Source of the DNA: Halorubrum salipaludis
Lineage (GTDB): Archaea > Halobacteriota > Halobacteria > Halobacteriales > Haloferacaceae
Direction of reading: 5' to 3'
DNA: 64,000 nucleotides
NCBI RefSeq assembly: GCF_002286985.1
Contig: NZ_NSKC01000008.1
Coordinates: 124,001 to 188,000 of the forward strand
Shown: piece after piece, positions 31,884-49,005 of the stretch
How positions within the stretch are numbered: the first letter of the stretch is position 1
Layout of the letters: each line of letters begins with the position of its first letter
The notes under the pieces: model-generated
What the model saw: the letters and a program-made list of their open reading frames with translations, nothing else
Databases searched by the model: none
What the model was told of the DNA's origin: nothing
Position numbers and translations under genes: made by a program

Positions 31884-31999
31884 ACGGACCGGAGGGGTGC
31901 GCGCCTCAAGTCCCTTGTGTCGGTGACGGCGCCGCGCCCTCGCGGTGTCCAGTCGGCCGGTATCGGCGGTTTCTTGCCGACCGCCGGACAGCCACGCGT

Positions 32000-33064: not shown

Positions 33065-33188
33065 CTCCGACGCGTGACTGCGACGCGACTTCCGCGTTTC
33101 GACGACGGCAGCGAGACGGGTGCCCACGGTAAACCGGGACACGGCGGGGTCGAAACGGAACAGTTTTACAATATCCTGCCCTACCCGT

Positions 33189-33300
33189 GAATGCGTCGAA
33201 CGGACGCGCTCTGGTGGTGTAGTCCGGCCAATCATATTGCCCTCTCACGGCAATGACCTGGGTTCGAATCCCAGCCGGAGCATCCCAATCCGACGCATTC
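33189..33300. repeat. 10-bp inverted repeat flanking tRNA-Glu
   Basis: GAATGCGTCG at 33189-33198 and its exact complement CGACGCATTC at 33291-33300 bracket the tRNA. In the precursor RNA they would extend pairing beyond the acceptor stem. Could be a processing or termination feature, or the trace of an integration site; the sequence alone does not decide. Confidence 0.7.
33208..33282 (+). tRNA. tRNA-Glu (CTC)
   Basis: A 75-nt tRNA. Acceptor GCTCTGG (33208-33214) pairs with CCGGAGC (33275-33281) including one G-T pair; discriminator A at 33282, no encoded CCA. Anticodon stem TTGCC/GGCAA (33237-33241 / 33249-33253) and anticodon CTC at 33244-33246. The T arm is CTGGG-TTCGAAT-CCCAG. The gene is flanked by a 10-bp inverted repeat (33189-33198 and 33291-33300). 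It borders an accessory region that starts right after it. Confidence 0.95.
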
Positions 33301-33388
33301 TCTCGGTTTTCGTGGTGAGCTAACCAGAGGTGGGTTCGCGTGGAACTGATACGTCGGCCCGCGATCGCTACGGATGTACAGTGTCGGG

Positions 33389-34330
33389 TTAGAACAGATC
33401 GGCCGTCAGACCGGAGCCGTCAGCGTCGAACGGGCCGATAGTTGCCACTGCGGCCGCACCAGCCGTATTCCCGATCGTCGCTAACTCCTCAAGATCCGAG
33501 ATACCGTCGCCCCGTGCGGCGAGGACTGCACCAGCGAACGCGTCACCAGCTCCGGCCGTGGTAGCGACCGTCGCCGATGGCGGAGTCGCAGTTTCCTGTT
33601 CAGTAATCTCACCGTCATCCACGGTCAATGCGGTCGTCTCTGCCGGCCCGTCCGTAATGAACACCATCGCCGAGTGGTTCGGCGGAAGCAGTTCGAGTAT
33701 GCCCTCAGGTGTGCGATCAACACCTGCCACCGCGAGGTCGTCTGTTCCGGCGAAGATCAGATCACAGTGCTGTAATATGTCCCTGAGAGCCTGGTGATAG
33801 GCGTCAGGAGTGGCCCACTGGTTTGTGCGTCCGTTCAGATCGAACGAGACGCGAGTCCCGCTTTCCGCGGCCGCCTCGGCGAGCCGTCGAACCGCAGCCT
33901 GGTTCACCGCAGTCGGCAACGTGACGCCTTCCAGATGGATCCACTCGTAGGGAGCCACTAGTGTCGCCGGATCGGCGGACGGGGTGAAACCGTAGCAACT
34001 CCCGGCCACCCAGGCGTTCCACTGTTCGTCGTCTTCCGTGGGGACGTACAGCGTGAGCGGTGATGCCGCGTTGACCCGCGTCACGTGTGTCGTGTCCACT
34101 GGGCCGTCCGTGAGGTGCTGGGCGGCCAGCTCTCCCATGGCGTCGGTTCCGATATTCGTCACGAGGCTGGTCTCGCTGCCGAGCGAGGCCGCCCATCGTG
34201 CGACGTTCGTCGCCGTCCCGCCGATGTGCCACTCAAACTGGCTTCCGGGTGTGATCGATGTCTCGTCCACCGGATAGAGATCGATCGTCGTATCGCCAAC
34301 GACCAATACACCCTGTTGATTATCGCTCAT
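33389..34330 (-). CDS. PfkB-family carbohydrate kinase
   Basis: A ribokinase/PfkB-type sugar kinase, 313 residues. N-terminal GGTATNVARWAASLG is the substrate-binding signature; the C-terminal motif with the catalytic Asp reads TTAGAGDAFAGAVLAARG (about residues 265-282). The middle has the NGRTNQW and FAGTDDLAVAG segments. The substrate (ribose, fructose, a 2-keto-3-deoxysugar or a nucleoside) cannot be read from the sequence. Start ATG at 34330; the longer frame is not supported. Base composition is a little lower in GC than the neighbours upstream, and it is the first gene after tRNA-Glu, which fits an acquired segment. Confidence 0.88.
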   Translation of the reverse strand: MSDNQQGVLVVGDTTIDLYPVDETSITPGSQFEWHIGGTATNVARWAASLGSETSLVTNIGTDAMGELAAQHLTDGPVDTTHVTRVNAASPLTLYVPTEDDEQWNAWVAGSCYGFTPSADPATLVAPYEWIHLEGVTLPTAVNQAAVRRLAEAAAESGTRVSFDLNGRTNQWATPDAYHQALRDILQHCDLIFAGTDDLAVAGVDRTPEGILELLPPNHSAMVFITDGPAETTALTVDDGEITEQETATPPSATVATTAGAGDAFAGAVLAARGDGISDLEELATIGNTAGAAAVATIGPFDADGSGLTADLF

Positions 34331-34397
34331 CGGTTTTCCGCCGGTAGGTGTTCGATATCCTCCGCAAACCAATCTTCGGCTGACTGTCTGTGGTTCG

Positions 34398-34829
34398 TCA
34401 CGGATCGGTGGGAGCCCCGTCAAGTGAGGAAGTGAGATGCTGTCGTACCTGCAGGCCTGTGTGAAACCGAGAGAGGATATCGGACTGATGAGTTGCGCAT
34501 GCGAGTACCGCCAGCCCACCGTTCCCGACTGGGACGATCCGTTGGTGTGACTTGTGCGGTTCGTGACGACAACTCGGACAATTCACTCCGCCGGCCGGCC
34601 GGTGATCGAGAAGTTCGGCGCGACCTTCAGTCGCAAGCCCACAGAGAGAGCAGAACTCTTCGAGGTGGTTGTCACACCCGACGAGCGGGATCGTAAATTG
34701 GTCAAGCAGCAGGAACGAGACGCTTTCTCTTCCTGGGGATTGAAGCGCAGATTCGCAAGCGGCACACTGTGTGAATGGATTCCTGTGGGGGGAATCTGGC
34801 ACTGGTTGGAGAGGGGCTCCGTTGTCCAT
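34398..34829 (-). CDS. Cys/His-rich zinc-binding protein
   Basis: A 143-residue soluble protein with several zinc-knuckle-like pairs: CAACESA, CDNHLEEFCSLCG, CPSCRHEPHKSH and CATH. The spacing suggests two cooperating zinc sites. It resembles small haloarchaeal zinc-finger proteins of unknown role; I cannot give a family name. ATG start at 34829 (a longer frame adds 31 unsupported residues). It lies 67 bp upstream of the sugar kinase on the same strand. Confidence 0.6.
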   Translation of the reverse strand: MDNGAPLQPVPDSPHRNPFTQCAACESALQSPGRESVSFLLLDQFTIPLVGCDNHLEEFCSLCGLATEGRAELLDHRPAGGVNCPSCRHEPHKSHQRIVPVGNGGLAVLACATHQSDILSRFHTGLQVRQHLTSSLDGAPTDP

Positions 34830-35226
34830 ACTCAAGATATATCTCCAATTGATGGGCCACGCCGGTAAGTTACGGGGAATCGGGTTCCTGACCCTGACTT
34901 CACCACCGACCGCTGACATCACCGCCGTTCGATGTCAGTTGACGTCGATGATTTTGATGTCGAACTGCACTGTGGAAATACTCAACAGTTGATGGTTTCA
35001 CATACCCAATTGCTCAATACAGGTGAACGATGTAGCGCAGTGGATCGGAATCTATCTGATCCTTGGTAAGAACACCGTGCAAGATATAGAGTATGAGTTC
35101 AGCACGAGGCCATAGTCAGCTATGCGTTCAGATTCAGTCTCATCGTCCGGGCGAATCTAAGGCGCGATTACAGAATCTCGTGGGCAAGAGTTCATCAAAA
35201 CAGAGCGTGAAGAGTTAGTGGCGGCC
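34830..35226. other. Non-coding, AT-richer stretch
   Basis: Nothing coding seen. The GC content is visibly lower than in the housekeeping regions. It holds a perfect 11-bp palindrome-like TCAACAGTTGA around 34982-34992, probably part of promoters for the flanking genes. No full tRNA, terminal repeat or insertion sequence end was found. Confidence 0.5.
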
Positions 35227-35844
35227 TTAACGAAGAATACTGAGTTCGCCTTCACCGAGACCGTCAAGTGCTTTCCCAAGTCCACGACTTAGAGCGAGGA
35301 AGTCTGCTTCCTCGGAATGGGGAGATACTGTATAGTCAAGAGCAGTCTGGGGGTTTTTCAGCCACCCTTGGAAGTCATCTGGCAATTCACTCCGAGGGAA
35401 CTTTCGAGGTACATCCATCCACTCAACCTCACGAGTGTGGGGGTAGCCGTACTCGTCGTTGAAGTGTCCGTCCCAGTCGTATTCGTATGAATCCTTCAGG
35501 TAGCCAATTGAATCAACGGTGTTCCGTCCGAGGTAGAGGAATAGTGGAGTGCCAACTGGCCAATCACGAAACCGAATGATTTGCTCGGCAGCGTTCTTGG
35601 CTCGGCCCTCTTTAATCCCCTTCTCTTCATACATCGCCTTTAGTTCGGTCGATTCAAGTCCACGAATGTCTGCAGTATCGGTTTCGCCGTCGAACGGCGT
35701 TCCCTCACGGAACATGAATCCAATAGCTACCTTGTTTTTCTCTCTGCAATCATCCGCGAACTGGTATCGGCGTGAAAAATCAGCACCTTCCGTACTGTCC
35801 TTCCAGTGACCGGCTGTGACCTTGGCAAGCTTCATACACTCCAT
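35227..35844 (-). CDS. Possible PUA/EVE-like domain protein
   Basis: A 205-residue single-domain protein with moderate GC and codon use unlike its neighbours. The features MKLAKVTAGHWKD, KVAIGFMF, IIRFRDWPVGTPLFLYLGRNTVDSIG and YDWDGHFND follow the pattern of EVE-like or Mrr-N-type PUA-fold modules, which read modified bases and often accompany restriction systems. In those families the 'GW-G...F-D-GD-V' pattern is typical. I see no nuclease or ATPase domain attached. The match is by pattern only, so treat it as a hypothesis. Two in-frame ATGs (35844, 35835) are possible starts. Confidence 0.5.
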   Translation of the reverse strand: MECMKLAKVTAGHWKDSTEGADFSRRYQFADDCREKNKVAIGFMFREGTPFDGETDTADIRGLESTELKAMYEEKGIKEGRAKNAAEQIIRFRDWPVGTPLFLYLGRNTVDSIGYLKDSYEYDWDGHFNDEYGYPHTREVEWMDVPRKFPRSELPDDFQGWLKNPQTALDYTVSPHSEEADFLALSRGLGKALDGLGEGELSILR

Positions 35845-36118
35845 CCATTATCTTACTTGGACTAAAGTGTTTCTGTTTGATACCAGTTGATATGGGATAA
35901 TTTGGGTTGTTCTAAGGGCAATAGGCATACTGAACAAGCTATAGACCAACCAGTGACCGATTCGCGCCCTACATCTTGTACGGCGCTCTGAACATCCTCT
36001 GAAACTGGTAGGACTTACAGCAGTCAATTCGCAGTTCTCACCGACCAGCTGTTTCAGGAGAGAATATGTCTGAAGAATTGGATTTCAACAAAGCCTGTCG
36101 AACGTCAGCGTTTCGCCA

Positions 36119-37174
36119 GTGAGCCGGAGGTTAATTGTCATACGAACACGAGAAACACTACACGAGAAGTCTGTTGTATCGAGAGAGCTGTCACTGCCGC
36201 GTCAGCTATTTGATCGTTCAGAGCGATACTCCGATATCTCATCGGACACCTCTGCGGACGACCTAGATGGTTCACCGGAGGCAGGCGACTCGAACAGTAC
36301 GGACGACGCCTCCGACCGGCTCGTCACCCGCCGGCGGCTCCTGCTCGGCGTCGCTGGGGGTATTGGGCTCCTCGGGGGCAGCGGACTCTACGTCGCACGA
36401 TCGCTCGACGGCGACTTCGGCGGGTACGACGCGCCGGAGACGCAGCCGATGGTGACGACCCGTGGACGCCTCGACGCGGACGACCCGACGGAGCGAGTGG
36501 GCTCGTGGGACTTCGACGAGGCTGACGCGGTGGTCCTGTACGTTCACGGCCTCGGCGCGGACGCCGAATCGGCCCGCGATCAGGCGTACACTGCCCAGTT
36601 GGGGCTTACAGCGGCGACGGGGCGCGCCGCGGAATCCGACGGCCCACCAGTGATCGGCTACTCGTGGGCGTCGAACGTCGACTGGGAGCCAGCAAAACAG
36701 ACCGCGGACGCCAACGGTGCCCCGCTCGCTGACTGGCTGTCGGCGTGGGCTGATGACGACGGGCGACCGATCTACCTGTTCGCCCACTCTCTCGGTGCCC
36801 GCGTGACAGGGGCAACGCTCCGCGAACTCGCTGAACGCGGGCAGACAGATGTCCTCGCTTCGGTGTCACTGTTCGGCGGGGCGATTCCGAACGATAGCGT
36901 CGCTGTTGACGGCCGATACGGTCCGGCCATCGCGGCGGTCGACGCCCCCGTCTTCAACTTCCACAGCCGGAACGACCGCGTCCTGAGCTGGGTGTATCGC
37001 GCGTCGGACCGGACTCGCGCGGTCGGCCACGGGGGGCTCGCGTCGTCGTCGTCGGCCGCACCGGCCAGCTACACGGACGTCGAGGTCACCGATTTGGTCG
37101 CCGACCACTATTCCTATCTCGAGCCTGAGGAGGGATGTCTGCCGCGGGCAGTCGGCCAAATTGGATTCGAGTGA
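36119..37174 (+). CDS. Alpha/beta hydrolase with Tat-type or membrane anchor
   Basis: A 351-residue serine hydrolase. Residues 72-95 have a twin-Arg (TRRRLLLGVAGG) hydrophobic segment typical of exported haloarchaeal proteins. The hydrolase domain has VVLYVHGLGAD (oxyanion strand), the nucleophile elbow FAHSLGAR with Ser at about residue 224, and an acid/His pair late (FHSRNDRVL, DHYSYLE). It resembles lipase/DUF726-like enzymes. The 70 residues before the anchor look atypical, and the GTG start at 36119 is uncertain: no other in-frame start codon precedes the signal, so the true 5' end may be altered by rearrangement. Confidence 0.7.
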   Translation: MSRRLIVIRTRETLHEKSVVSRELSLPRQLFDRSERYSDISSDTSADDLDGSPEAGDSNSTDDASDRLVTRRRLLLGVAGGIGLLGGSGLYVARSLDGDFGGYDAPETQPMVTTRGRLDADDPTERVGSWDFDEADAVVLYVHGLGADAESARDQAYTAQLGLTAATGRAAESDGPPVIGYSWASNVDWEPAKQTADANGAPLADWLSAWADDDGRPIYLFAHSLGARVTGATLRELAERGQTDVLASVSLFGGAIPNDSVAVDGRYGPAIAAVDAPVFNFHSRNDRVLSWVYRASDRTRAVGHGGLASSSSAAPASYTDVEVTDLVADHYSYLEPEEGCLPRAVGQIGFE

Positions 37175-37381
37175 GTCAGTAGGTCAGATCGACTTAAGGG
37201 CCTCCCAGTCGCTTCGACCTTGATCTCCGTGTCCCGAGCTCGTGAGGCAGACGCCTCGCTAAACTGATTTGGGTATTGAGGTTGGTACGCGACCTCGACG
37301 ATAATGCTGGTTCTGATGACCGGCGATCGCCAACGAGTTTAACCAACAGTGCGCTGTACTCCGCGGTTCTGTTGGTTAAGG

Positions 37382-37570
37382 TTAGTGGGACTCAGTTTCG
37401 TCTGTCTCAACCCGGCCGTGTCGTTCATCGATCTCATCGAGCATATCGAGTGTTTTGCGGATCGACGCCCGAACCGCGTCGCTTCGGTTGACGAATTTTC
37501 CCTCGTCACCGACGTGCTCGTCGAGGTCATCAAGCAATTCCTGGGGAATCTCGACGCTGACCTTCGGCAT
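37382..37570 (-). CDS. Ribbon-helix-helix (CopG-type) regulator
   Basis: A 62-residue dimeric DNA-binding protein. MPKVSVEIPQELLDDLDEHV forms the ribbon and first helix; NRSDAVRASIRKTL is the second helix. Highly typical of small haloarchaeal RHH proteins. It is preceded by a start ATG at 37570. It may regulate itself or the Mrr-type endonuclease gene upstream of it, which lies 133 bp away on the same strand. No toxin partner is visible next to it. Confidence 0.85.
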   Translation of the reverse strand: MPKVSVEIPQELLDDLDEHVGDEGKFVNRSDAVRASIRKTLDMLDEIDERHGRVETDETESH

Positions 37571-37703
37571 ACGCTCGTGTTCACAGAGGAATACTTCAGC
37601 GTGTCGCACAGTACACCGGACTCGTTTGGCGGCCTCAATATGCACGCTCCATAGCGGTCGATAAGACCGAACACCATTACCGGTCCAACACCTCGGAAGC
37701 AGG

Positions 37704-39068
37704 TCAGATCCCACCGACGGTGGCGAGGAGTCCAAGCAGTACCAATACAACAAACGCGACTGCGCCGACGGCGAGCGGCGTGTTCTCCATGGCTTTCTCG
37801 TAGAACGGCATCGCGTTGTAGTGGTCTCGGAACGCGTCTCGGTTCGTCTCGTCGTAGAAGTACTTGGTTTTGAGTGCGAACCGCTCGGTCACCGCACAGC
37901 CGGTACAGACTGGTGTTCCTTCCAACCGCTCGGTTTTGATGTGCGAGTCGCAGTTGATACTCCCGCAGTTCGTACAGAACGTGTAGGTGGCGTCCGTTCC
38001 GGCAGTGTCACAGTGAATGCACTGGTGGATGCCGTCTTCCTTGGTGACGCGTGAGGGCCCGGCCGCGAAATACTCGTACGGGTACGAGTACTCCCCGAGC
38101 TCGGTCGTGTGCCGGACCTGTGGTAGATACACCGGTTCGATCGATTGGACGGACACGTCGGAGCGGTTCGGTTCGCAGGTTTTGGTGTACGTGACGTTGT
38201 TATCGCCCGTGTAGGAGACGGTCGTCGTGTGGTGATCGCGGAGCCGTTCGACCGCCCACTCCTTGTACTCAGTCTGGGTCTGCCCGAACCGACGCTCCTC
38301 GATCGCATCGAACTCGGTCTCGAATCGATCCGCATCGAGGGCAATCGTCGCGTTGAGATTCTCCACCACGAGATTCGACACGTCACTCGACGCGGTGCGT
38401 GGCTGGCCGCGCTCTGCGTGGACGACGAACCGGGATCGGTCGTTGATTCGATGAACAACGCCAACCGACGTCTCGAAGACCGCGTTCGTGTCCGCCATCA
38501 CGGTGACGACCGGTCGAAACGTGACTTCCGAGTACGGGTCGGGAAGGTCTGCGGAATCGATGTTGTCGATGTCGCGGAACGCCGCCGTGACGGGGGCAGC
38601 CACTGTCGTCGCCGGATCGTACGGGCGGAGCGTCTCGTCGCACAGGATTTCGATCCGGCCGTTGTAGAGGTTGAGTCCGATATCGTCGGCAATCTCACGG
38701 AGGTCTTCCCCGTCGATCAGTTCGATCGGATACGGATCGCCGTTTGCTCGGAGTCGCTCGGCGTACTCTATCGCTGGCCCAGTGAACCGGCCAGTCGTCG
38801 CCACCATGCCGCGCTTCGGCCCGTCGAACTCGAACGTCGCGACCGCCGAGTGCAGCTTCTGGACGATCGGCCGCCCGACCGTGTCCGTGTGCTTACACTC
38901 GACGACGACCCCGCGGCGCGTGCCGTCGACGACCTCCTCCATCAGGATGTCCCGCCCCTCGTCGGCCGTCCGCTCCGCCTGCCGCACGTTCTCGTACCCG
39001 AGGTTCCGGAACACGTCCTCCATCACGTCCTCGAACTCGAACCCGGTGAGATCGTCCAGGACAGGCAT
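37704..39068 (-). CDS. Mrr-type restriction endonuclease with zinc ribbon and membrane anchor
   Basis: A 454-residue protein that starts with a PD-(D/E)XK Mrr_cat domain (about residues 5-125). Catalytic residues are Asp40 (EGRDI), Glu57 and Lys59 (VECKH). A central beta-rich region of about 220 residues follows, then a zinc ribbon with CIHC and CTNC pairs plus CDSH and CTGC, and one C-terminal membrane helix (last 25 residues). Mrr enzymes cut methylated or foreign DNA. Membrane anchoring would place the nuclease at the inner face, where incoming DNA enters; this is inference. It follows the helicase-nuclease operon by 65 bp on the same strand and may be co-expressed. Confidence 0.82.
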   Translation of the reverse strand: MPVLDDLTGFEFEDVMEDVFRNLGYENVRQAERTADEGRDILMEEVVDGTRRGVVVECKHTDTVGRPIVQKLHSAVATFEFDGPKRGMVATTGRFTGPAIEYAERLRANGDPYPIELIDGEDLREIADDIGLNLYNGRIEILCDETLRPYDPATTVAAPVTAAFRDIDNIDSADLPDPYSEVTFRPVVTVMADTNAVFETSVGVVHRINDRSRFVVHAERGQPRTASSDVSNLVVENLNATIALDADRFETEFDAIEERRFGQTQTEYKEWAVERLRDHHTTTVSYTGDNNVTYTKTCEPNRSDVSVQSIEPVYLPQVRHTTELGEYSYPYEYFAAGPSRVTKEDGIHQCIHCDTAGTDATYTFCTNCGSINCDSHIKTERLEGTPVCTGCAVTERFALKTKYFYDETNRDAFRDHYNAMPFYEKAMENTPLAVGAVAFVVLVLLGLLATVGGI

Positions 39069-39133
39069 GGATTCTATTCTCCCAGATTCGGCCGTGACGG
39101 AAATACGTACCTTCGATTAGCCAGCAGTCCCGA

Positions 39134-42100
39134 CTACTCCTCGAATCCGGGCCCGACGGTGAGCGAGTCCGGTGCGCAGGGCAGCTGATTGTGTTGACAC
39201 CACCGACAGTGGTCGCCGGCCTCGTACCGGTCGAAGGAGAACTCGGCGATGCGGTTCATCGACTCCGTCACGTCGGTCCGGACCGCGTCCAGCTCGCCGT
39301 CGCCGAACGGTCGCGTTTCGACCGTCGGGCCGATGTCGCCGACGTACGCGTACCCCGCGCGCGTCACCGGCTCGTCGTACAGCTCCCGGCACGCCAAGAG
39401 GTAGATCGGGAGCTGTTTGTCGTCCCGCAGATCGCGGCGGCGTTCGGTCGCCTTGTAGTCGATCACGAGGAGGTCGTCGTCCGGCGTTCGGTAGACGGCG
39501 TCGATGAACCCGACGAGTTCGTGTCCGTCGAGGTCGAGTTCGAACTCCCGTTCGGCGTCGACGACCTCGTAACCGGAGAGATCCAGTTCGAAGTACCGGT
39601 CGATGCACCGTTTCGCGGCCGGCAGCGCGTCCTCGGCGCGGCGATGACCGGCGAGGCGCTCGCAGACCTCGTACCACTCGTCTTTCCCGCTCGCGTCCCG
39701 GTTCGCGGCTTGCTCCGCGGTGTCGTGGAACAGCACCCCGATCTCGCGCTGCGACGCGCCGCTCCCGGCGTCGCTCGGTGCCGCCGGCCCGCGGTAATCG
39801 GCGAACGCCTTCACCACGTACTCCAGGTAGTGGGTCCGCGGGCACTCCTCGTAGGCCGCCAGCGAGGTGTAGCTGTGCGACAGCGAGGGCGATGGCGTCG
39901 TCGGGCCGTTCAGGGCCCCAACACGGAGCGTTTCCCGTACCGGATTCGGTGCGAGATCCCCGTCGAGGGCGGCCGTCGCGAGGTCGAGCACGCGGTCGCG
40001 CGCGGTCTCGACGGTGAGCTCCTCGCCGTCGTGCGTGACGCCGCCGCCGACGCGCCCCGTCGTCTCGTCGGCCAGCGTGTCGGTCCAGTCCGCCGCCGCG
40101 TCCGGGAGGCAGTCCTGAACGTCGGTCCAGAGGGGGAGTCGCCCCCGGTCGGGCCGCCACGGGATCCGAGGCGGCAGGATCTCGTCGACGGTCTCCGAAA
40201 CCGGGTGCGCGTCCGCGGCGTCGTCGTCCGCACTCCCGCCTTGGAGGACGAGGACATCCTCGGCGCGCGTGATGCCGACGTGGAACACGCGACGCGTCTC
40301 TCGCGCGTCGCGCTCGACGAAGTCCTCGGCGAACGCCGCCTCCGGCCCGTCCGAGAGCCCCGTTTCGAGCGCGTCGTACGCGCGCGAACTCGGCGCCCAC
40401 TCCTCGGCCGTGACTCGCGGGATGAGGACGACCGGGAAGTCTAACCCCTTGCTCTTGTGAATGGTCATCACGTTGACCGCGTCGTCGGCGACGTCCGGCT
40501 GGCTCGTGGGCGAAGTGCCGCTCTCGTCGAACAGCGAGTCGTGGTGTTCGAGCGAGTCGACGAACGCCGGGGTGAGCGGCGGTTGGACGGCGCCGTTCCC
40601 GTACTGTTCGACGACGGTCTCGAGCCGGGCGAGGTCCCGGCGCTCCTGTTCGCTGAGGTACCACTCGATGTTCGTGAGCTCCGTGAGCTCGCGGTACAGG
40701 TGGCTGAGCGACGCCGAGTCGCGGAGGTCGAGCAGCTCACAGGCGTGCTCGCGTGCCTCGGCGACGCGGTCGGGTTCGTCGAACTGGTCGAGCGGCGTCT
40801 CCAGGAGCGCGTCCACGAGCGGGTCGTCGCCGGCGTTGAGCGCGCGGAGGTCGGCGTCGCAGAGCCGGTACCGCATCAGGAGAACGCGGTTCCAACTCAC
40901 CTCGTCCTCCGGGCTGGCGAGCGCCTTCAGGTAGGCGGTGACGGTCCCGACGCCGACCGACTCCGCGGCCAGATCGCCGGCGACCTGATACGGGATTCCG
41001 GCGTCTTCGAACGCTTCGATGACCGGCGTTGCGTGGGCGTTCTTCCGGACGAGGAGCGCGATGTCGCCCGGGTCGTACGCTTCGTCGAGGTCCGCTGCCG
41101 CCCCGCTCAGTAGGTTCTGTACGACCGTGCGAAGCTGTGTCGCGCCGTCCGCGTCGCCCTCTTCGTCCGGGAGCTCGACGGTGGCGACGGCGTCCCCGTC
41201 GTACGCGGGTTCGTCGACGCGGGTGAGCGTCTTGTGTCGCTCGCGGCGGTCGAGCCGCTGAATCGCCTCGTTCGCGAAGTCGAGGATCGGCTGCCGCGAC
41301 CGGAAGTTCTCCGTTAAGGGCTCGTCGGCGAGCGCCGCGAACGCGCGGTCGAGCTCGTCGGTGATGTTGGCGACGTGTGCCCCGCGCCACTCGTAGATCG
41401 CCTGGTCGTCGTCGCCGACGACGAACAGGTTGTCGTCGGTGACGAGCGACGTGACGAGGTCGAACTGGAGGCGGTCCGTGTCCTGGAACTCGTCGCAGAA
41501 CACGTACTCCCACCGGTCGGCGATCTCGTCGCCGACGGGCGACGCCATCAGCGCGGCCGTCTCCGCGACGAGGCCGTCGAAGTCGACGAGGTTCCGGTCG
41601 TCGAGTTCCCGCTCGTACGCCGCGTATCCCGCCGTCAGGTCGCGGGCAGCGAGGCAGTCGGAGAGGAACGAGTCGAGCTGTTCCGTGAGTTCGAGGTCGA
41701 GGCTCCCCGGGATCCCCGTCGGCGCGCCGCTCGCGTATCCGCCGAGCAGGTACTTCGGGAGTTTGTGCGCGTTCTCCGGCAGCTCCCGCTCGCCCGCCTC
41801 GTGGGCTTCGAACGCCGCTTCCAGCGCGTCACAGAGGTCGACCAGCCGGTCGAGGAAGTCCCGCACGCTGGCTTCCATGCCGCCTCCCTCCAGTGCGTCG
41901 CGTTCCGCGACGAGCTCGGCGCGGACGGCCGGGAGCGAGTCGAGCACGCTCGACACGGAACGGCCGCCCAAGTGATCGCCGGCGATCGCTTTGACGCGCT
42001 CCGAAACGTCGGCGAGCTCGTAGACGCGGTCCGCGGGCCCGAGGAACGCGTCGACGTCGTCCGGTGAGACGCCGCTCCGCTTCATCGACCCGACGAAGTC

Positions 42101-42592
42101 GAGAAGCTTCGTCGCGGCCCCCGGCGCGTACCCGTCGCTCCCGTACACGTTCGGTTTCACCGACCGGTACTCGACCTCGTCGAGGACGTCCGAGACGACG
42201 GCGTACTTCTCGGCGTCCGTGGCGACCTCGAAGTCGGGGTCGAGGCCGGCCTCGTACGCGTAATCGGAGAGGATCTCGTTGCAGATCGAGTGGTACGTGT
42301 ACGCGTCGACGTCGTACCCCGCCGTCCCGAGCTTCGCGTTGAGCTTCTCCCGCATCGAATCGGCGGCGTTGTTCGTGAACGTCAACGCGAGAATCCGGTC
42401 CGGGGACACGCCCTCCTCGTCGATGAGGTGCTCGATCTTCCGCACCATCGTGAACGTCTTCCCGGTCCCGGCCCCGGCGAGGACGCGCATCGGGTACGCG
42501 TCGGCGTCGATGATCGCCCGCTGTTGCGGCTCCGGGGACACGTCGTCCTCCGGGACGGGGAACCACGACGGGTAGTCGGCGCCGTCGCTCAT
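39134..42592 (-). CDS. AddA/UvrD-like helicase with C-terminal RecB-like Fe-S nuclease
   Basis: A 1152-residue SF1A DNA helicase-nuclease. Walker A is GAGTGKTFT (about residues 40-48), motif II DEFQDTDRLQ, motif III GDDDQAIYEWRGA, and motif V-VI MTIHKSKGLDFPVV. The last 250 residues are a RecB-family PD-(D/E)XK domain: ECPRTHYLEY, FIDAVYRT, VIDYKATE, and the Cys cluster CRWCQHNQLPC, which with the first Cys forms an iron-sulfur staple. It acts on double-strand DNA ends. The start overlaps the preceding nuclease gene (ATGA). The three-gene operon (45548 to 39134) resembles AddAB. Confidence 0.9.
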   Translation of the reverse strand: MSDGADYPSWFPVPEDDVSPEPQQRAIIDADAYPMRVLAGAGTGKTFTMVRKIEHLIDEEGVSPDRILALTFTNNAADSMREKLNAKLGTAGYDVDAYTYHSICNEILSDYAYEAGLDPDFEVATDAEKYAVVSDVLDEVEYRSVKPNVYGSDGYAPGAATKLLDFVGSMKRSGVSPDDVDAFLGPADRVYELADVSERVKAIAGDHLGGRSVSSVLDSLPAVRAELVAERDALEGGGMEASVRDFLDRLVDLCDALEAAFEAHEAGERELPENAHKLPKYLLGGYASGAPTGIPGSLDLELTEQLDSFLSDCLAARDLTAGYAAYERELDDRNLVDFDGLVAETAALMASPVGDEIADRWEYVFCDEFQDTDRLQFDLVTSLVTDDNLFVVGDDDQAIYEWRGAHVANITDELDRAFAALADEPLTENFRSRQPILDFANEAIQRLDRRERHKTLTRVDEPAYDGDAVATVELPDEEGDADGATQLRTVVQNLLSGAAADLDEAYDPGDIALLVRKNAHATPVIEAFEDAGIPYQVAGDLAAESVGVGTVTAYLKALASPEDEVSWNRVLLMRYRLCDADLRALNAGDDPLVDALLETPLDQFDEPDRVAEAREHACELLDLRDSASLSHLYRELTELTNIEWYLSEQERRDLARLETVVEQYGNGAVQPPLTPAFVDSLEHHDSLFDESGTSPTSQPDVADDAVNVMTIHKSKGLDFPVVLIPRVTAEEWAPSSRAYDALETGLSDGPEAAFAEDFVERDARETRRVFHVGITRAEDVLVLQGGSADDDAADAHPVSETVDEILPPRIPWRPDRGRLPLWTDVQDCLPDAAADWTDTLADETTGRVGGGVTHDGEELTVETARDRVLDLATAALDGDLAPNPVRETLRVGALNGPTTPSPSLSHSYTSLAAYEECPRTHYLEYVVKAFADYRGPAAPSDAGSGASQREIGVLFHDTAEQAANRDASGKDEWYEVCERLAGHRRAEDALPAAKRCIDRYFELDLSGYEVVDAEREFELDLDGHELVGFIDAVYRTPDDDLLVIDYKATERRRDLRDDKQLPIYLLACRELYDEPVTRAGYAYVGDIGPTVETRPFGDGELDAVRTDVTESMNRIAEFSFDRYEAGDHCRWCQHNQLPCAPDSLTVGPGFEE

Positions 42593-43494
42593 CGCCGCAC
42601 CTCCGGGGAGAGGCGATCGGCGCACATCTCCCGGTAGTCGCAGTTCGGGCACGCCTCCTCGGTGATGAGGTCGAACGGCTCCGGCTCGAAGGCGTCGCCC
42701 GTGATTCCGTCGTGGGCGGCGCGAATGAGCGCCCGGATCGTGTCGGACTGCGCCTCGTAGATCCCCGTGGTCTCTCGCGGATACCCCCGCACCGACACCT
42801 CGTACCCGTCCGGCGTGCTCTCGAACGACGTGCTGTTGAGCAGCCCGTAGAAACTGAATCGGACGTCCATCCCGTCCTCGTAGAACGGTTCGTTCTTCAC
42901 GCCCTCGACGTACGTCGCCGTCTGGAACGCGTTCCGCACCCGTTTCGGTTCGTGCGCCTCCCCGTCGAGATGCGCGCCGAGATACTCGGCCGTCCCCGAC
43001 GAGAGGACACCGCGGGTAGTCCGCTTGTAGTCGAAGACGTGGAGCCCGTCCGCCGTCCGGACGACGTTATCGGCCTTCCCGTGCAGCTCCCGGCCGTCCA
43101 CTTCGCACTCGACCCGGCACTCCGTGGCGAGCGACCGGCGGGCGTGCTCGATCCCGTCGCCGCCGTCCGGATCGAAGAACGACTCGACGGCGGCCCGGTT
43201 CTCGGCACACTGGTACTCCCGGTGTGCGGCCGATTCGTAGTCGTCCGGCGCGCTGTGCTCGTCCCACTTCGCGTCGAAGGTCCGCATCGCCCGGTCGGAG
43301 ATGGCCCTCGGATCGTCGTCGCGGTCGGTCGCGTCGCACACGTCCTCGATCGTCTCGTGGTAGATCGTTCCCTGATTCAGGTACAGCTCGGACCGGTCCG
43401 GCGTGTTCACGCCCTGCGCGTACCGGTAGTCGTACTGCCGGGGGCAGGTCGCGTACGTCGCCAGCCGCGACGGCGACAGTGACGCCGAACTCAT
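42589..43494 (-). CDS. RecB-like Fe-S nuclease (AddB C-terminal-like)
   Basis: A 301-residue stand-alone PD-(D/E)XK nuclease of the RecB/Cas4 group. The first Cys (Cys17) is in YATCPRQYDY, the catalytic core has GKADNVVRTADGLHVFDYKRTTRG, and the C-terminus has the Cys triad CPNCDYREMC. Together these four Cys fit a 4Fe-4S staple. Bacterial AddB joins this domain to an inactivated helicase, but here the two halves are separate genes that overlap by 4 bp (43491-43494). It could pass for a Cas4, but no CRISPR or cas genes lie nearby, and the operon points to end resection. Confidence 0.85.
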   Translation of the reverse strand: MSSASLSPSRLATYATCPRQYDYRYAQGVNTPDRSELYLNQGTIYHETIEDVCDATDRDDDPRAISDRAMRTFDAKWDEHSAPDDYESAAHREYQCAENRAAVESFFDPDGGDGIEHARRSLATECRVECEVDGRELHGKADNVVRTADGLHVFDYKRTTRGVLSSGTAEYLGAHLDGEAHEPKRVRNAFQTATYVEGVKNEPFYEDGMDVRFSFYGLLNSTSFESTPDGYEVSVRGYPRETTGIYEAQSDTIRALIRAAHDGITGDAFEPEPFDLITEEACPNCDYREMCADRLSPEVRR

Positions 43495-45548
43495 CGCCGC
43501 ACCTCCCCGTTCGCGAGCTCGACGCGGGCGCGCAACGCCTCCCGGAGCCTGTCGCCGCGCACGCCGCTCTCGTCGAGCAGGCCCTGAATCTCGCCGAGCT
43601 CCGCCTCCACCTCGTCGAGCGACACCGACACGTCCCGACTGTTGGCGCGCCGCACCTCCGCGAGGGCGTCGTCGACCCGCGACAGCAGAAACTCCTCCGC
43701 CGCCCGCTCGCTCGTGACGTGCGGGTCGTCGGCGTCGGTCACCCACGGGAGCTCGTCGTACGCCGCCGTGAGGAACCGCGACGCCTGCGCGCGCTCCTCG
43801 AGCGCCGTGTCCTCGAACTCGTAGAGACAGCAGTACAGCCGCTCCGTCGCCGCGTCGGCCCCGACGGCCAAGCGCCGCCGCGCGTGTTCCGTGTGGTACC
43901 GCGCGAACGGCCGCGCCGACGCCGTCGACGTCGTCGGGAACGTCGCCGCCACCGCCGACGCGTCGAGCTCTGTGACCGCCGGGTAATCCGGCATCGACGC
44001 GACGCGCTCCGTCGGGAACAGCCGCGTCAGGAACGCGTCACCCGGGTACTCGCCGTCGACGAGGTTCACAAGGAACACCGCGCGGAACGACTCGTTCTTG
44101 ACGGCCCGTAAGTGGTCGACGCGCACGCCGCCGTCGAGGTCCGTCGCGCTCGTCTGACTCCGCCGCGGCGCGTACTCGTGGGCGCGTTCCATCATCTCTC
44201 GGAAGGACGCCCACGTCGCGTCCGCGAACGCCGTGGTTTCGAGGAACTCGGCCATGCGAAACGCCCGCCGGACGTTCCCGAACTGCGACCGCGCCTCGAG
44301 CGGCGAGGCCCGCTCCGCGATGCGCTCTTTCAAGCCGACAGCCGTCGCCCACCACCGCACCGCGTCCTCGATCGACTCCATGCTACGCATTCGGTCCACG
44401 CGGGCACTGTCGGTATCCGCCCCGCGGTCGAGGCGGTCACCGTCGTCGTCGCCCGCGAGCTCGCGGACGACCGCGAGTAGCTCCCGGATCGCCGGGTCGT
44501 CGCCGAACCCGGTCACCGTCGTCGACGCCGTCGGGATCCCCGCGCGTTCGAACGCCTCGATGACCTCCGTGACGCCTTCTCCGCTCCCCTTCGCGGCGAC
44601 CGCGATGTCGTCGTACCCCCAGTCGGAATCCCCGACGAGCGACTCGATCTCGTTCGCGATCGCGGCGAGCTGCTCGTCGCTCGACGCCGCGGCCAACACC
44701 GAGACCGAGCCGAGCTCCGGGTCGGCGTCCACCCGCCCCTCGGCGAAGTACGCCGCCGTGGCTCCCGGTCGCGTCGACGGCGGAGACGAGACCGCGCGGC
44801 GGGACGCCTCGAACGAGACGCGCTCCGTCACCGGTCCCGTCTCGACCCACGTGCGGCGCACGCTCGCGTGCTCCTCGGCGACGCACGCGAGCTCGCAGTC
44901 CGCGGTGAGCGCGTCGAGGTACGCGCGGTCGAGCGGGAGGAACTCCTCGAACTCGACCGCGAGCACCGCGTCGGCGTCGACGACGGCGTCGCGGTCGTCG
45001 CCGGCGAGCGCGTCGCGCGCCGCCGAGATGAGCTGCCCGCGCTCCATGTGGTCGTGTTCGGCGAGCCACTCGTGGAACGCGTCGAGCGCGGCCGCGATCT
45101 CCCGGAGTTCCGGGGTCTCGTCGGGCGTGACGGTTTGCCAGGAGAGCGTGTCCATCACTCGGTCCACGTCGTCGACGAACGACGGCTGCGCGGACGCCCG
45201 CCGCAGGTACTCCGCGTCCCACTCGTAGTCGGCGAGGAACCGATGTAGGAGCTCGCGCCGTAACGCGTCCGAGAGGATGACGCGGTCATCGGACTGGCTG
45301 AGGACGTCGGTCGCGTGCACGACCAGCGACGTCACGTGCGGCGTCGCCGCCCCCGACAGTTCCTCGTCCAACGCCTCGCGGAACGCGTCCGTGCTCGTCG
45401 GCGCGCCCGTGACGACGAGTACGTCCTCGGACTCGTGGTCGTCGAGGAACTCGGCGTAGACGTCCCGCGCCGTTGCTTCGACGTTGTGCGCGCCGAACGG
45501 TACCGTCACCAGCTCACCGTCGAAGCTGCGGCGATCCGTCTCGCTCAT
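43491..45548 (-). CDS. AddB-like inactivated-helicase subunit
   Basis: A 685-residue protein of the AddB/RecC-like group. It opens with an inactive Walker-like strand (ELVTVPFGAHNVEATARDVY, no GxGK), and has the downstream helicase-like patches VILSDALRRELLHRFL, DDIAVAAKG, VRVDHLRAVKNESFRAVFLVNLVDGEYPG, the last of which matches AddB motif V-like sequence. The nuclease domain usual in AddB is missing; it is supplied by the next gene. The protein is therefore expected to be a structural and Chi-like recognition partner of the 39134-42592 helicase. It begins the operon. Confidence 0.75.
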   Translation of the reverse strand: MSETDRRSFDGELVTVPFGAHNVEATARDVYAEFLDDHESEDVLVVTGAPTSTDAFREALDEELSGAATPHVTSLVVHATDVLSQSDDRVILSDALRRELLHRFLADYEWDAEYLRRASAQPSFVDDVDRVMDTLSWQTVTPDETPELREIAAALDAFHEWLAEHDHMERGQLISAARDALAGDDRDAVVDADAVLAVEFEEFLPLDRAYLDALTADCELACVAEEHASVRRTWVETGPVTERVSFEASRRAVSSPPSTRPGATAAYFAEGRVDADPELGSVSVLAAASSDEQLAAIANEIESLVGDSDWGYDDIAVAAKGSGEGVTEVIEAFERAGIPTASTTVTGFGDDPAIRELLAVVRELAGDDDGDRLDRGADTDSARVDRMRSMESIEDAVRWWATAVGLKERIAERASPLEARSQFGNVRRAFRMAEFLETTAFADATWASFREMMERAHEYAPRRSQTSATDLDGGVRVDHLRAVKNESFRAVFLVNLVDGEYPGDAFLTRLFPTERVASMPDYPAVTELDASAVAATFPTTSTASARPFARYHTEHARRRLAVGADAATERLYCCLYEFEDTALEERAQASRFLTAAYDELPWVTDADDPHVTSERAAEEFLLSRVDDALAEVRRANSRDVSVSLDEVEAELGEIQGLLDESGVRGDRLREALRARVELANGEVRR

Positions 45549-46318
45549 GGACGGCCCTCAGCCGGAGAAGACGGAACGGTGGTACGCTGCATACGACACG
45601 ATTCTAAGACCTGGCTGATAGGTGTTCTCCCGATCGGTATCGTCCGTCGCACGTCATCGGAATTTGGCGGGCGGGCCGATACGTCGCTGTCACGACGACC
45701 GGTCGCCGATCGCTTCGTCCGGTCGCGGGCTCAGGGAGAGGAAACCGCCCGTGCCGACTCGCTGGGAACCTCGCGGAGGAGGGAGAAACGAGCGGAGAGT
45801 CTCCGGCAGAGACGACCGGTCCGGTCCGTTCGACAGCTGGATCCGAACAGAGATCGAAAGTCAAACATATAATATTTGTATATAACATTGTAATCTGATA
45901 ATTATGAAACGGACATCGTCACAGAACTGGATTCGTTTATCCTAATCGCTCTCGGTTCGACAACAGTAACAGACATATGTCGCCCTCAGACGGCGATTTG
46001 GGTCAATTTCCATCGTCAGATAGACGGGGTATCCATCGAAAGGACCCATATTCACCCATATTTTAAATAATCACGCCATATATTTTGTATCTCAACCCTT
46101 TAATATCGTATTCTACTATATAATTCCGATAAATAGTCAGTAAGTGAAACATTTCGCTCTTTCTAACTCCCCACAAACAAATATGTTTGTACTCGTAGTA
46201 TTTGAAGTATAGATTTTATTTGTTATCTGTTTATGGGTGTGCCAATACAACTGGAATCCGATTCCACCGGTCCGGTATCGGACGACCAAAACGGGAAGCG
46301 AGTCGGTCGCGGACCCGA
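45549..46318. other. Long AT-rich non-coding region
   Basis: No gene found in 770 bp. From about 45860 to 46260 the sequence is mostly A and T, in sharp contrast to its surroundings. It contains an interrupted palindrome ACAAAC-AAATAT-GTTTGT at 46173-46190 and many TATA-like runs. It separates the addAB-like operon start from the end of the DoxX-like gene. It may hold promoters, or be the scar of an AT-rich insertion. Confidence 0.6.
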
Positions 46319-46717
46319 CTACTCGTCGCTGTCGGCGGCGTCGAGATAGGTGATCGCGCCGCCGAGCAGCGCGAGGTTTTTCAGGAAGTTGATCTTGTTG
46401 TCGTGGCGCTCTTTCCCCTCCATCGTCCAAAAATTGTGGATCGCGGGGGTGGTGCCGAGGAAGAACGTGACGAGCGCGCCGGCCGATACTCGGGGCAACT
46501 TCCAGAACACGACGCCGAGGTTGGCGACGAACAGCATCCCGGTAACGAACGGGACGAGCAGGTCCGGCATCGGCACGCCCTTCTCTTCGGCCACCTCCAC
46601 CCGCTTGTCGTTGTTCTTGAACCCGTCCACCGCCATGTACGCGAGCACGCCACCGTACAGGGCGCGGCCGATCGCGGACGGGGAGTCTGCGGTCTCCTCG
46701 CCGTCGCTCACGCTCAC
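46319..46717 (-). CDS. DoxX-like small membrane protein (copy 2)
   Basis: A 132-residue protein with four hydrophobic segments, paralogous to the protein at 12327-12740 (VPMPDLLVPFVTGM, WKLPRVSAGALV, IHNFW). The GTG start at 46717 overlaps the stop of the BNR-repeat gene by 4 bp (GTGA), so the two are translated together; a second in-frame GTG lies at 46711. No function is established for this haloarchaeal branch. Confidence 0.7.
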   Translation of the reverse strand: MSVSDGEETADSPSAIGRALYGGVLAYMAVDGFKNNDKRVEVAEEKGVPMPDLLVPFVTGMLFVANLGVVFWKLPRVSAGALVTFFLGTTPAIHNFWTMEGKERHDNKINFLKNLALLGGAITYLDAADSDE

Positions 46718-47760
46718 ACCACCTCGATGCGGCTGACGTTCGCGTCGACGCGGCCGACCGTCTCGTACGCCCCGTCGTCGGTCCGGCGCATGAGGCGGCC
46801 CTCCACGTCGTCGCGCTGGTCCGGCACGTCGAACAGCCCCGAGCCGCAGATCACGTCGCCGTCGTACACGTCCCACGTCTCGATGATCTCGTGGGGCTCG
46901 CCCGGGAACGACACCCGCTCGAAGTCCCGACCGAAGTTCGTCGACTCGAACAGCGCCACCTCGTGGTCGTCGTTCACCCACGCCGGCGGCGCCTCCTCGC
47001 CGCCGCAGAAGAAGACGGTCCCGTCGTGGACGAACACGCGCCTGACGTACGAGAAGTCGTTCCCGGTGTCGATCCGCGTCCACGACTCGCCCGCGTCGGT
47101 GGTGCGCCAGAGCCCGCCCTCGCCGACCGCGTGGCCGAGCCCGAGGTTCTCCAAGTTGTGATCGAGGTACCCCGTCGCCGCCAGCCACACGTCCTCCGAG
47201 ATCGGGAGGATCTGGTGGATGTCGTCGACGATCGTGTCGCGTCGGTCCGTCCACGTCTGCCCGCCGTCCGCGCTCAGGTGGATCCCGCCGGCCTCGACGC
47301 CCGCGATCAGCTGGTCCGGGCGGCCGGGGACCGCTTCGAGCGCGCGCAGCCGGGCGTAGTGCGGGTCGATCGGCGACTCCCAGTGGCCGCGCGACGGGAG
47401 GTCGCGGAACCCCTTCTGTTCGGCCCACGTCTCCCCGCCGTCGACCGAGCGGAAGACGTACGGGTCGTTCGTCCCGGCGTAGAGCGCGCCGTCCGCGGTC
47501 GCGAGGATCGACCAGACCTCGCTCTGGCCAGCGTGCCAGAACCGGTCCCCGAGGGGGACGCCGAGGTCCTCCCACGTCTCGCCGCCGTCGAGGGAGCGGT
47601 ACGCCCCCGCGGTGGACGCGACGAAGACGCCCTCGGTGTGGTCCCACGACTTCACGGCGGTGACGACCCCGCAGTCGAGCACTTCGCGCGCCTCGTCGCG
47701 CTCGAACGGGACATCGTCGACGCGGTACAGACCGTCGTCTGTTCCGATCAATAGTGGCAT
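46714..47760 (-). CDS. BNR/Asp-box repeat beta-propeller protein
   Basis: A 348-residue cytosolic beta-propeller. Four Asp-boxes are clear: RSLDGGETW, RSVDGGETW, SADGGQTW and TTDAGESW. The family includes sialidases, Ycf48-like photosystem assembly factors and sortilin-type receptors; the active-site residues of sialidases (Arg triad, Tyr/Glu pair) are not seen in order, so a binding or assembly role is likely. No signal peptide. It begins with MPLLIGTDDGLYRV at 47760 and is divergent from the TatD-like gene. Confidence 0.75.
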   Translation of the reverse strand: MPLLIGTDDGLYRVDDVPFERDEAREVLDCGVVTAVKSWDHTEGVFVASTAGAYRSLDGGETWEDLGVPLGDRFWHAGQSEVWSILATADGALYAGTNDPYVFRSVDGGETWAEQKGFRDLPSRGHWESPIDPHYARLRALEAVPGRPDQLIAGVEAGGIHLSADGGQTWTDRRDTIVDDIHQILPISEDVWLAATGYLDHNLENLGLGHAVGEGGLWRTTDAGESWTRIDTGNDFSYVRRVFVHDGTVFFCGGEEAPPAWVNDDHEVALFESTNFGRDFERVSFPGEPHEIIETWDVYDGDVICGSGLFDVPDQRDDVEGRLMRRTDDGAYETVGRVDANVSRIEVV

Positions 47761-47877
47761 ACTCCGTGTGAGACGAGGAACCACAATAAAGGTTACCAAT
47801 GTGTACATCTAAGTGCGCTCGGAGCGAGGGTAAACCATACCGACCACGGGGCGACTCGCCTCGCTCGGACTCCACTC

Positions 47878-48915: not shown

Positions 48916-49005
48916 TCCGCGGTTCCTACCAGCACAGTCCCGTCGAAGCGTTATTCTTCAGGCAGATCCCTGAGCGACAGCGGCGATCGCTTATAAACGA
49001 ACGAG

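What the first reader, a model, noticed from the sequence alone, without database searches (positions are those of the whole stretch)
39134..45548. Split AddAB-like operon: inactive helicase, separate Fe-S nuclease, helicase-nuclease
Three genes joined by 4-bp overlaps encode an AddB-like helicase without Walker A, a 301-residue RecB-like nuclease with a four-Cys staple, and an AddA-like helicase that itself ends in a second four-Cys RecB-like nuclease. In bacteria AddB unites the first two. Both nuclease domains keep the Asp/DYK core. Archaeal end resection is usually credited to Mre11-Rad50-HerA-NurA, so this would be an additional, bacterial-like machine.
Basis: partly seen in the sequence, partly recalled or inferred. 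Interest (0 to 1): 0.58.

Follow-up and report, generated by a model that had tools for sequence, protein, structure and literature searches.

The report
Mobile split-AddB helicase-nuclease of haloarchaea
A salt-loving archaeon carries a three-gene DNA-chewing machine related to bacterial AddAB, with one subunit split in two; its close relatives move between distantly related archaea and often sit in one gene row with an Argonaute defence protein, which suggests that it destroys invading DNA.

Summary
Observation confirmed: three minus-strand genes (685, 301, 1152 aa) joined by two ATGA overlaps. Fold predictions place the 685-aa protein on AddB's helicase-like part (no Walker A; B. subtilis AddB 2-769) and the 301-aa protein on AddB's Fe-S nuclease part (785-1138): AddB split at its domain border. 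The third protein has an intact motor and a second Fe-S nuclease, but the motor lies nearer to PcrA/UvrD/AdnB than to AddA. The trio keeps its order in 68 of 68 complete loci. The window's subtype is patchy, barely follows host families, and lies in a variable 13-kb stretch beside a tRNA-Glu. In 12 of 33 such loci it goes with a pAgo and a PLD nuclease gene, and all 12 close pAgo homologues in 392 genomes belong to such loci. Best reading: a mobile end-degrading machine used in defence, alone (here) or with Argonaute; another subtype may be housekeeping. In two subtypes the separate nuclease lost its catalytic residues but kept all four cysteines. Function and complex formation are inferred, not shown.

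The parts
43491..45548 (-). AddB helicase-like half, 685 aa, no Walker A (P0001)
   Evidence: AddB is the top PDB match by profile (3u44_B, E 9.4e-10) and by Foldseek (4cei_B, E 4.3e-22); VIA-align Z about 25, 603-610 residues
42589..43494 (-). Separate AddB-type nuclease, 301 aa, four Cys plus D/DYK (P0002)
   Evidence: AF2 pLDDT 91.2; matches AddB 785-1138 (Z 16.0) and AdnA 791-1039 (Z 16.4)
43024..43032 (-). DYK catalytic codons of the 301-aa nuclease
39134..42592 (-). UvrD-type motor with C-terminal four-Cys nuclease, 1152 aa (P0003)
42455..42478 (-). Walker A (AGAGTGKT) of the motor
39452..39460 (-). DYK catalytic codons of the motor protein's nuclease
43491..43494 (-). ATGA stop/start overlap, AddB half to nuclease
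42589..42592 (-). ATGA stop/start overlap, nuclease to motor
37704..39068 (-). Mrr-type endonuclease gene, 454 aa, 65 bp downstream on the same strand; possible operon member
   Evidence: PF04471 E 9.6e-24; a homologue lies downstream of the trio in 5 further group-1 loci (L017, L055, L061, L072, L075) of 33
33332..46329 (.). Variable stretch holding the trio; a relative (G015) has other DNA of 3.2 kb here
   Evidence: flanks 31000-33331 and 46330-48925 align at 88% and 90%, nothing between
33208..33282 (+). tRNA-Glu (CTC) at the left edge of the variable stretch

Best explanation
The three genes encode one DNA-end-processing helicase-nuclease of the AddAB/AdnAB architecture: a UvrD-type motor with its own Fe-S nuclease (P0003), a motor-dead AddB scaffold (P0001), and AddB's Fe-S nuclease as a free subunit (P0002). 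It would bind broken or linear DNA through the Fe-S nuclease module, unwind it 3'-5' and cut both strands. In the window's subtype it is a horizontally moving accessory cassette used against foreign DNA: alone, as here, on DNA ends made by the virus or plasmid or by neighbouring nucleases (perhaps the Mrr enzyme 65 bp downstream), and in about a third of its relatives together with a long Argonaute and a PLD nuclease that would make the cuts. Shown here: genes, motifs, predicted folds, conserved order, mobility, neighbours. Inferred: complex formation, Fe-S cluster, unwinding, cutting, defence.
For: AddB fold and split at the domain border. Order in 68 of 68 complete loci and intact catalytic residues in both nucleases in groups 1 and 1b, where alignable. 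Patchy: 9 of 59 genomes searched, own included, 137 of 392 genomes of the order for all subtypes. Host family changes 22 times on the group 1+1b tree, shuffled mean 24.1, 20 of 200 shuffles as low. Empty site in G015. Plasmids: 16 records. pAgo with the trio in 12 of 33 group-1 loci: 10 intact rows, L064 with a partly deleted PLD, and G402, where a contig break falls inside the PLD gene. In reverse, all 12 pAgo homologues of 86% or more belong to these loci, 11 on the same contig as AddB and G402's across that break, where about 1 would be expected from 32 group-1 genomes among 392. A second, separate arrangement with pAgo downstream in 2 Halosimplex loci of group 1b. TmtA at 4 loci (L018, L051, L067, L070), methylase and Mrr neighbours. 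Defence by a related pAgo-PLD pair was shown by others (PMC11442185: abstract, section 8 and passages read).
Against: 21 of 33 group-1 loci, the window among them, have no pAgo gene; the window shows no pAgo or PLD remnant in 3 kb upstream and its genome has no match to either. PADLOC has no match for P0001. At 7 group-1 loci (5 without any pAgo trace, L060 and L065 with PLD remnants) only 4 of 10 flanking proteins had PADLOC hits, one of them TnpB/Cas12f-like, against 2 of 10 for group 3: a weak contrast. The 20-of-33 against 0-of-10 neighbour count uses labels taken from group-1 loci and is biased. Group 3 sits in recurring chromosomal surroundings in one family, as a repair enzyme would. 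No match in 50,697 phage records, none found in viral contigs with the AddB profile.
Confidence: 0.58

Rival explanations
1. Housekeeping repair: an extra double-strand-break resection enzyme, as AddAB is in bacteria, feeding homologous recombination.
For: AddAB fold; group 3 is common in family f7 (83 of 137 positive genomes of all subtypes are f7, my count) with recurring chromosomal neighbours and no defence labels; methanogens carry canonical AddAB.
Against: The window type is patchy and exchanged between families, its sister group 1b is largely on plasmids, and many closely related genomes lack it; NurA is present in the same genome.
Confidence: 0.22
2. A tool of the mobile elements that carry it: plasmids use it to clear competing plasmids or viruses, or to process their own ends.
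For: Group 1b loci lie on contigs of 15-431 kb and 12 of the 16 plasmid hits are 57-69% identical to P0001; group 1 hops between families.
Against: Many group-1 loci, the window among them, lie on large, probably chromosomal contigs; no sign of the trio in viruses.
Confidence: 0.14
3. Three separate activities that are merely co-transcribed, without a shared complex.
For: No complex was modelled here; the nuclease is a free protein.
Against: Invariant order, mostly with stop/start overlaps, at 68 of 68 complete loci; the two halves map onto one AddB chain; the nuclease is kept with all four Cys where its catalysis is lost, which fits a structural role.
Confidence: 0.06

Closest known systems
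AddAB (Bacillus subtilis; PDB 3u44, 4cei)
   Same: AddB fold in two pieces, motor-dead AddB half, four-Cys nuclease, two nuclease domains, motor-nuclease partner
   Different: AddB is two proteins; the motor protein also bears a four-Cys nuclease and its motor is nearer to UvrD/PcrA; Chi recognition unknown
AdnAB (mycobacteria; PDB 6ppj, 9np6)
   Same: UvrD-type motor, a nuclease on both sides; the 301-aa protein matches the AdnA nuclease as well as AddB's (Z 16.4 and 16.0)
   Different: AdnA is one chain; the profile of P0001 prefers AddB (9.4e-10) to AdnA (0.0076)
UvrD-Cas4 fusion proteins (PMC5704561, passages read)
   Same: P0003 has this domain make-up; defence neighbourhoods were proposed for such fusions
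   Different: Here the fixed partners are an AddB-like half and a separate nuclease, which the passages I read do not mention
APAP, haloarchaeal long-A pAgo with PLD protein AgaP (PMC11442185)
   Same: pAgo-PLD pair in haloarchaea; that paper notes a helicase gene next to some such operons
   Different: The group-1 PLD has HxK and GSxN 15 residues apart, not about 50; the trio often occurs without pAgo
Canonical AddAB of methanogens (L165, L167, L169)
   Same: AddB profile match (hhalign prob. 98.5, E 3.7e-15, two of the three AddB in the profile)
   Different: AddB fused, 1026-1141 aa, with a separate canonical AddA

Membership tests
AddAB | AddB subunit with the SF1 helicase fold, motor-dead | tested here: met
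AddAB | AddB carries its C-terminal four-Cys nuclease in the same chain | tested here: not met
   separate protein at all 68 complete loci
AddAB | AddA subunit of the AddA/RecB type | tested here: not met
   motor closer to PcrA/UvrD/AdnB; clade with methanogen AddA rejected, p 0.016; with RecB added it is one side of a branch at 73/75, neither shown nor rejected
AddAB | Chi recognition | not tested
   no search for a Chi-like motif made
AddAB | DNA-end-dependent unwinding and degradation | not testable with these tools
   needs protein
AdnAB | Two chains, each motor plus nuclease | tested here: not met
   three chains
AdnAB | UvrD-type lead motor joined to a nuclease | tested here: met
UvrD-Cas4 fusion | UvrD motor fused to a four-Cys PF12705 nuclease | tested here: met
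   P0003:
APAP (pAgo plus AgaP) | pAgo and PLD genes in the locus | tested here: not met
   window and its genome; both genes intact at 10 of 33 group-1 loci
RecBCD | RecD motor subunit | not tested
   no targeted search made

The most novel reading that the evidence does not exclude
A five-gene Argonaute-PLD-split-AddAB defence machine: Argonaute and PLD cut invading DNA, and a dedicated end-degrading complex loads on the cut, destroys the DNA and supplies fragments that Argonaute uses as new guides, so that the loose cooperation of pAgo with RecBCD seen in E. coli is built into one operon; the trio alone, as in the window, would be the end-degrading core that survived loss of the Argonaute pair or was joined by it later.
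Probability: 0.33. Interest if true: 0.78.

Novelty: new variant of a known kind. Interest (0 to 1): 0.6.

Why it matters
It extends the AddAB/AdnAB/RecBCD architecture to a split, mobile form in haloarchaea and ties it physically to Argonaute in many loci. Where pAgo guides come from, and who finishes off the cut DNA, is open in natural hosts; the E. coli work I read used the host's own RecBCD with foreign pAgos. Natural operons with and without pAgo, and subtypes with an active or a dead separate nuclease, offer ready-made comparisons. The kept cysteines in the catalytically dead subunits also point to a structural or DNA-gripping role of the four-Cys module apart from cutting.

Tried and rejected
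Walker A hidden or lost only in the window: none of 70 homologues has the motif. The 'AddA' label for P0003. Viral origin: no match in viral contigs with the AddB profile or in phages; the single viral-contig hit of the nuclease alone is 27% over about 145 residues and was not followed. A direct repeat of the tRNA end at the right edge: no shared word of 12 bases or more between 33201-33345 and 45501-46420. First gene caller (codon-based) failed on some loci; replaced by an amino-acid-based one. A first Walker regex was wrong for UvrD-type motors and was corrected. PADLOC on flanks of loci without intact pAgo gave a weak contrast. Literature: searches 'AddAB, haloarchaea, helicase' (titles and starts of abstracts only), 'argonaute, haloarchae, AddAB' (no paper), 'argonaute, helicase-nuclease, haloarchae, UvrD, defense', 'haloarchaea, AddB, UvrD, nuclease, RecB' and 'RecBCD, AddAB, archaea, Mre11, NurA, HerA' showed me no description of the split trio or of its tie to pAgo; only open-licence papers are held. 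In the Haloferax volcanii repair review PMC7776575 the passages found name no RecBCD or AddAB enzyme of that organism. The search for Argonaute-associated Cas4 (ACE1) papers gave only unrelated ACE1 hits.
Full report
What is there. On the minus strand lie three genes, 45548-43491 (685 aa), 43494-42589 (301 aa) and 42592-39134 (1152 aa), joined by two ATGA overlaps. The window is part of a 3.5-Mb genome in 27 contigs (G000); the 51 related loci found by name are all haloarchaea.

The 685-aa protein is the helicase-like half of AddB. A profile of 37 homologues (A5) has B. subtilis AddB as its best match among solved structures (3u44_B, E 9.4e-10; UvrD1 7.3e-9; AdnA 0.0076). The AF2 model (pLDDT 81.3, pTM 0.79) has AddB 4cei_B as Foldseek's first hit (E 4.3e-22, with PcrA 5.0e-22 close behind). 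In VIA-align UvrD scores higher (Z 32.0, 497 residues, rmsd 6.3) than AddB (Z about 25), but AddB covers most: 603-610 residues, rmsd 4.7-4.9, model 10-680 on AddB 2-769. The fold alone therefore does not separate AddB from UvrD; the extent, the missing Walker A and the profile do. The motif [AG]x4GK[ST] is absent from the first 90 residues at 70 of 70 loci.

The 301-aa protein is AddB's nuclease set free. Its model (pLDDT 91.2) matches AdnA 791-1039 (Z 16.4), AddB 785-1138 (Z 16.0) and the Argonaute-associated Cas4 proteins ACE1 (9iac, Z 14.3; 9iab, 13.7); rows within 1 Z are tied. So the gene border lies between AddB residues 769 and 785. Against the fused AddB of methanogens, hhalign gives the 685-aa family prob. 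98.5, E 3.7e-15 on the front part and the 301-aa family prob. 91.0, E 1.1e-6 on a short stretch (54 columns) at the start of the nuclease.

The 1152-aa protein joins a UvrD-type motor with intact Walker A to a second four-Cys nuclease. Profile scores: PcrA 254.6, UvrD 215-233, Rep 199.5, AdnB 173-186, AddA 178.8, RecB 96-99 bits (AddA and AdnB are close here, while the single-sequence search has AdnB up to 103.6 and AddA 66.1). In a 17-row tree it falls beside UvrD and methanogen UvrD-nuclease proteins rather than with methanogen AddA; holding it with methanogen AddA is rejected (p 0.016), but the deeper branch is weak (73/75). PMC5704561 (passages read) describes UvrD-Cas4 fusions in bacteria and mesophilic archaea as likely defence parts.

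Family and subtypes. The AddB profile A1 hits 137 of 392 genomes of the order, in 50 of 95 genera; a single-protein search hit 9 of 59 genomes, own included. In 392 genomes drawn from the phylum, 50 matched; 19 of these lie outside the order and are weak matches to longer proteins. Of six of these that I opened, three are fused AddB next to AddA (L165, L167, L169) and three are UvrD-nuclease proteins (L164, L166, L168). I sorted 70 fetched loci into group 1 (window type, 33), 1b (12), 2 (7), 3 (10) and 4 (8). All three genes were present at 68, always in the same order. The other two are L019, whose AddB is cut to 311 aa, and L068, which stops at a contig end. These are 70 of the roughly 150 matches listed, chosen to cover group 1 fully and the others by sample.

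Nuclease residues. Separate nuclease: C17-D142-DYK-C282-C285-C291 complete in 32 of 33 group-1 rows (the other shows a gap at C17 where my caller started the gene late), 11 of 11 in 1b, 7 of 8 in group 4 (one has Y for the first of the later cysteines). Groups 2 and 3: all four Cys and D142 kept in 17 of 17, but DYK lost in 17 of 17 (for example DYV, DYR, RFV). Motor-linked nuclease: complete in 67 of 68 (the remaining row, L080, is a cut call). So the four-Cys site outlives catalysis in the separate subunit.

Mobility. The concatenated tree of groups 1 and 1b needs 22 changes of host family; shuffled labels give 24.1 on average and 20 of 200 shuffles are as low (quick tree): kinship of hosts is barely followed. 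In G015, the flanks 31000-33331 and 46330-48925 align at 88% and 90% and lie 3.2 kb apart, with a different 790-aa gene between, whereas the window has 13.0 kb there, beginning next to tRNA-Glu. Group 1b lies largely on plasmids: 16 plasmid records match, 12 of them at 57-69% identity. The window's genome bears a second, diverged trio (L013, group 2; 33% for AddB) on another contig.

Tie to Argonaute. At 10 of 33 group-1 loci the row is pAgo (883-895 aa) - PLD (705-706 aa) - AddB half - nuclease - motor, with PLD ending 5 bp before AddB in the rows that I checked. L064 has pAgo and a partly deleted PLD. L068 (G402) has the PLD tail at the contig end, and the rest of the PLD and the pAgo at the end of another contig. 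L059, L060 and L062 keep only PLD remnants; L065 shows a 31-residue remnant (E 2e-4) that one search did not recover. The remnants show loss of the pair at some loci; parsimony on the tree counts 8 changes of state, remnants scored as present. In reverse, of pAgo homologues in 392 genomes all 12 at 86% identity or more belong to group-1 loci (11 on the same contig as AddB, G402 across the break); the next, at 81% (G401), has no AddB hit in its genome, and G280 (53%) has none either. All 10 full-length close PLD homologues (92% or more) also lie at group-1 loci. A second arrangement occurs in group 1b: in Halosimplex L141 and L143 the trio is followed by a 378-aa gene on the other strand, a 43-52% identical pAgo (in L143 in two frames) and a PLD; at 5 of 12 fetched 1b loci the PLD follows without pAgo. 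That plasmid PLD has HSK at 105 and GSPN at 156, close to the H105/K107 and G157/S158/N160 of AgaP (PMC11442185, section 8 read). The group-1 PLD has HTK 118 and GSAN 136 instead. The APAP paper says that a helicase gene occurs next to some ago-agaP operons and goes no further in the passages I read; PMC6299218 (passages) lists a UvrD/PD-(D/E)XK orthogroup among pAgo neighbours.

Other neighbours: TmtA homologues in L018, L067, L070 and, by PADLOC, L051; methylases; Mrr genes; BrxC- and PglZ-like genes upstream of a group-4 trio (L109); an SMC-type ATPase with a metallophosphoesterase upstream of a group-4 trio (L100). Counting pAgo, TmtA, type II methylase and Mrr labels: 20 of 33 group-1 loci, and 0 of 12, 1 of 8, 0 of 7 and 0 of 10 in groups 1b, 4, 2 and 3 (the labels came from group-1 loci, so this is biased, and L051 is not counted). 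A label-free look with PADLOC at 10 flanking proteins of seven group-1 loci gave 4 hits (one TnpB/Cas12f-like), and 2 of 10 at six group-3 loci.

Mechanism. From family knowledge of AddAB and AdnAB (recalled), the four-Cys nuclease grips DNA ends, the motor pulls, the motor-dead half guides one strand, and two nucleases cut the two strands. PMC4824097 (passages) places Chi reading in AddB's inactivated helicase domain; whether P0001 reads a sequence was not examined. In E. coli, CbAgo cuts lead to degradation with RecBCD (PMC10164581, passages), and RecBCD shapes, but is not required for, small-DNA guides (PMC10269773, passages). A dedicated complex in one operon with pAgo would make that partnership native. 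For the window, which has no pAgo, I hold only the broader reading: an accessory end-degrading enzyme, most likely for defence (0.58).

What remains open: no complex was modelled, no activity is known, and group 3 may well be a repair enzyme. The work suggests one architecture with several uses.

Noticed in passing
window 37704-39068 (-) and 37382-37570 (-): Mrr-type endonuclease with a Cys-rich segment and a hydrophobic tail 65 bp after the trio, then a small protein that looks like a ribbon-helix-helix repressor (by eye); Mrr homologues follow the trio at 5 other group-1 loci.
   Followed up: partly
window 35227-35844 (-): 205-aa protein without Pfam hit; weak PADLOC match (PDC-S02, E 3.6e-4) to the front part of a candidate defence protein.
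   Followed up: no
L013 9276-15750 (second contig of the same genome): A second, diverged trio in the same genome (AddB 33% identical) whose separate nuclease has DYV instead of DYK.
   Followed up: partly
L100 2268-6513, also L108, L146, L147, L149: Genes of 450 and 967 aa (metallophosphoesterase and SMC-type ATPase, SbcCD-like) upstream of group-4 trios: two end-processing machines side by side. Families were tested for L100 only; the others go by size.
   Followed up: partly
L109 1603-7394: BrxC- and PglZ-like genes immediately upstream of a group-4 trio.
   Followed up: no
L077 13890-15017 (-) and L015 2965-3300: The first 100 or so residues of the haloarchaeal pAgo resemble the 375-378-aa proteins found beside group-1b trios (about 30% identity), as if a nucleic-acid-binding module were shared.
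   Followed up: partly
L014 13388-14980, L015 1029-2705, L077-L082, L084: An AAA_14/DUF4143-type ATPase gene lies next to the trio or to pAgo at many group-1 and 1b loci, mostly on the opposite strand.
   Followed up: partly
L165, L167, L169: Methanogen genomes with canonical fused AddB next to AddA.
   Followed up: partly
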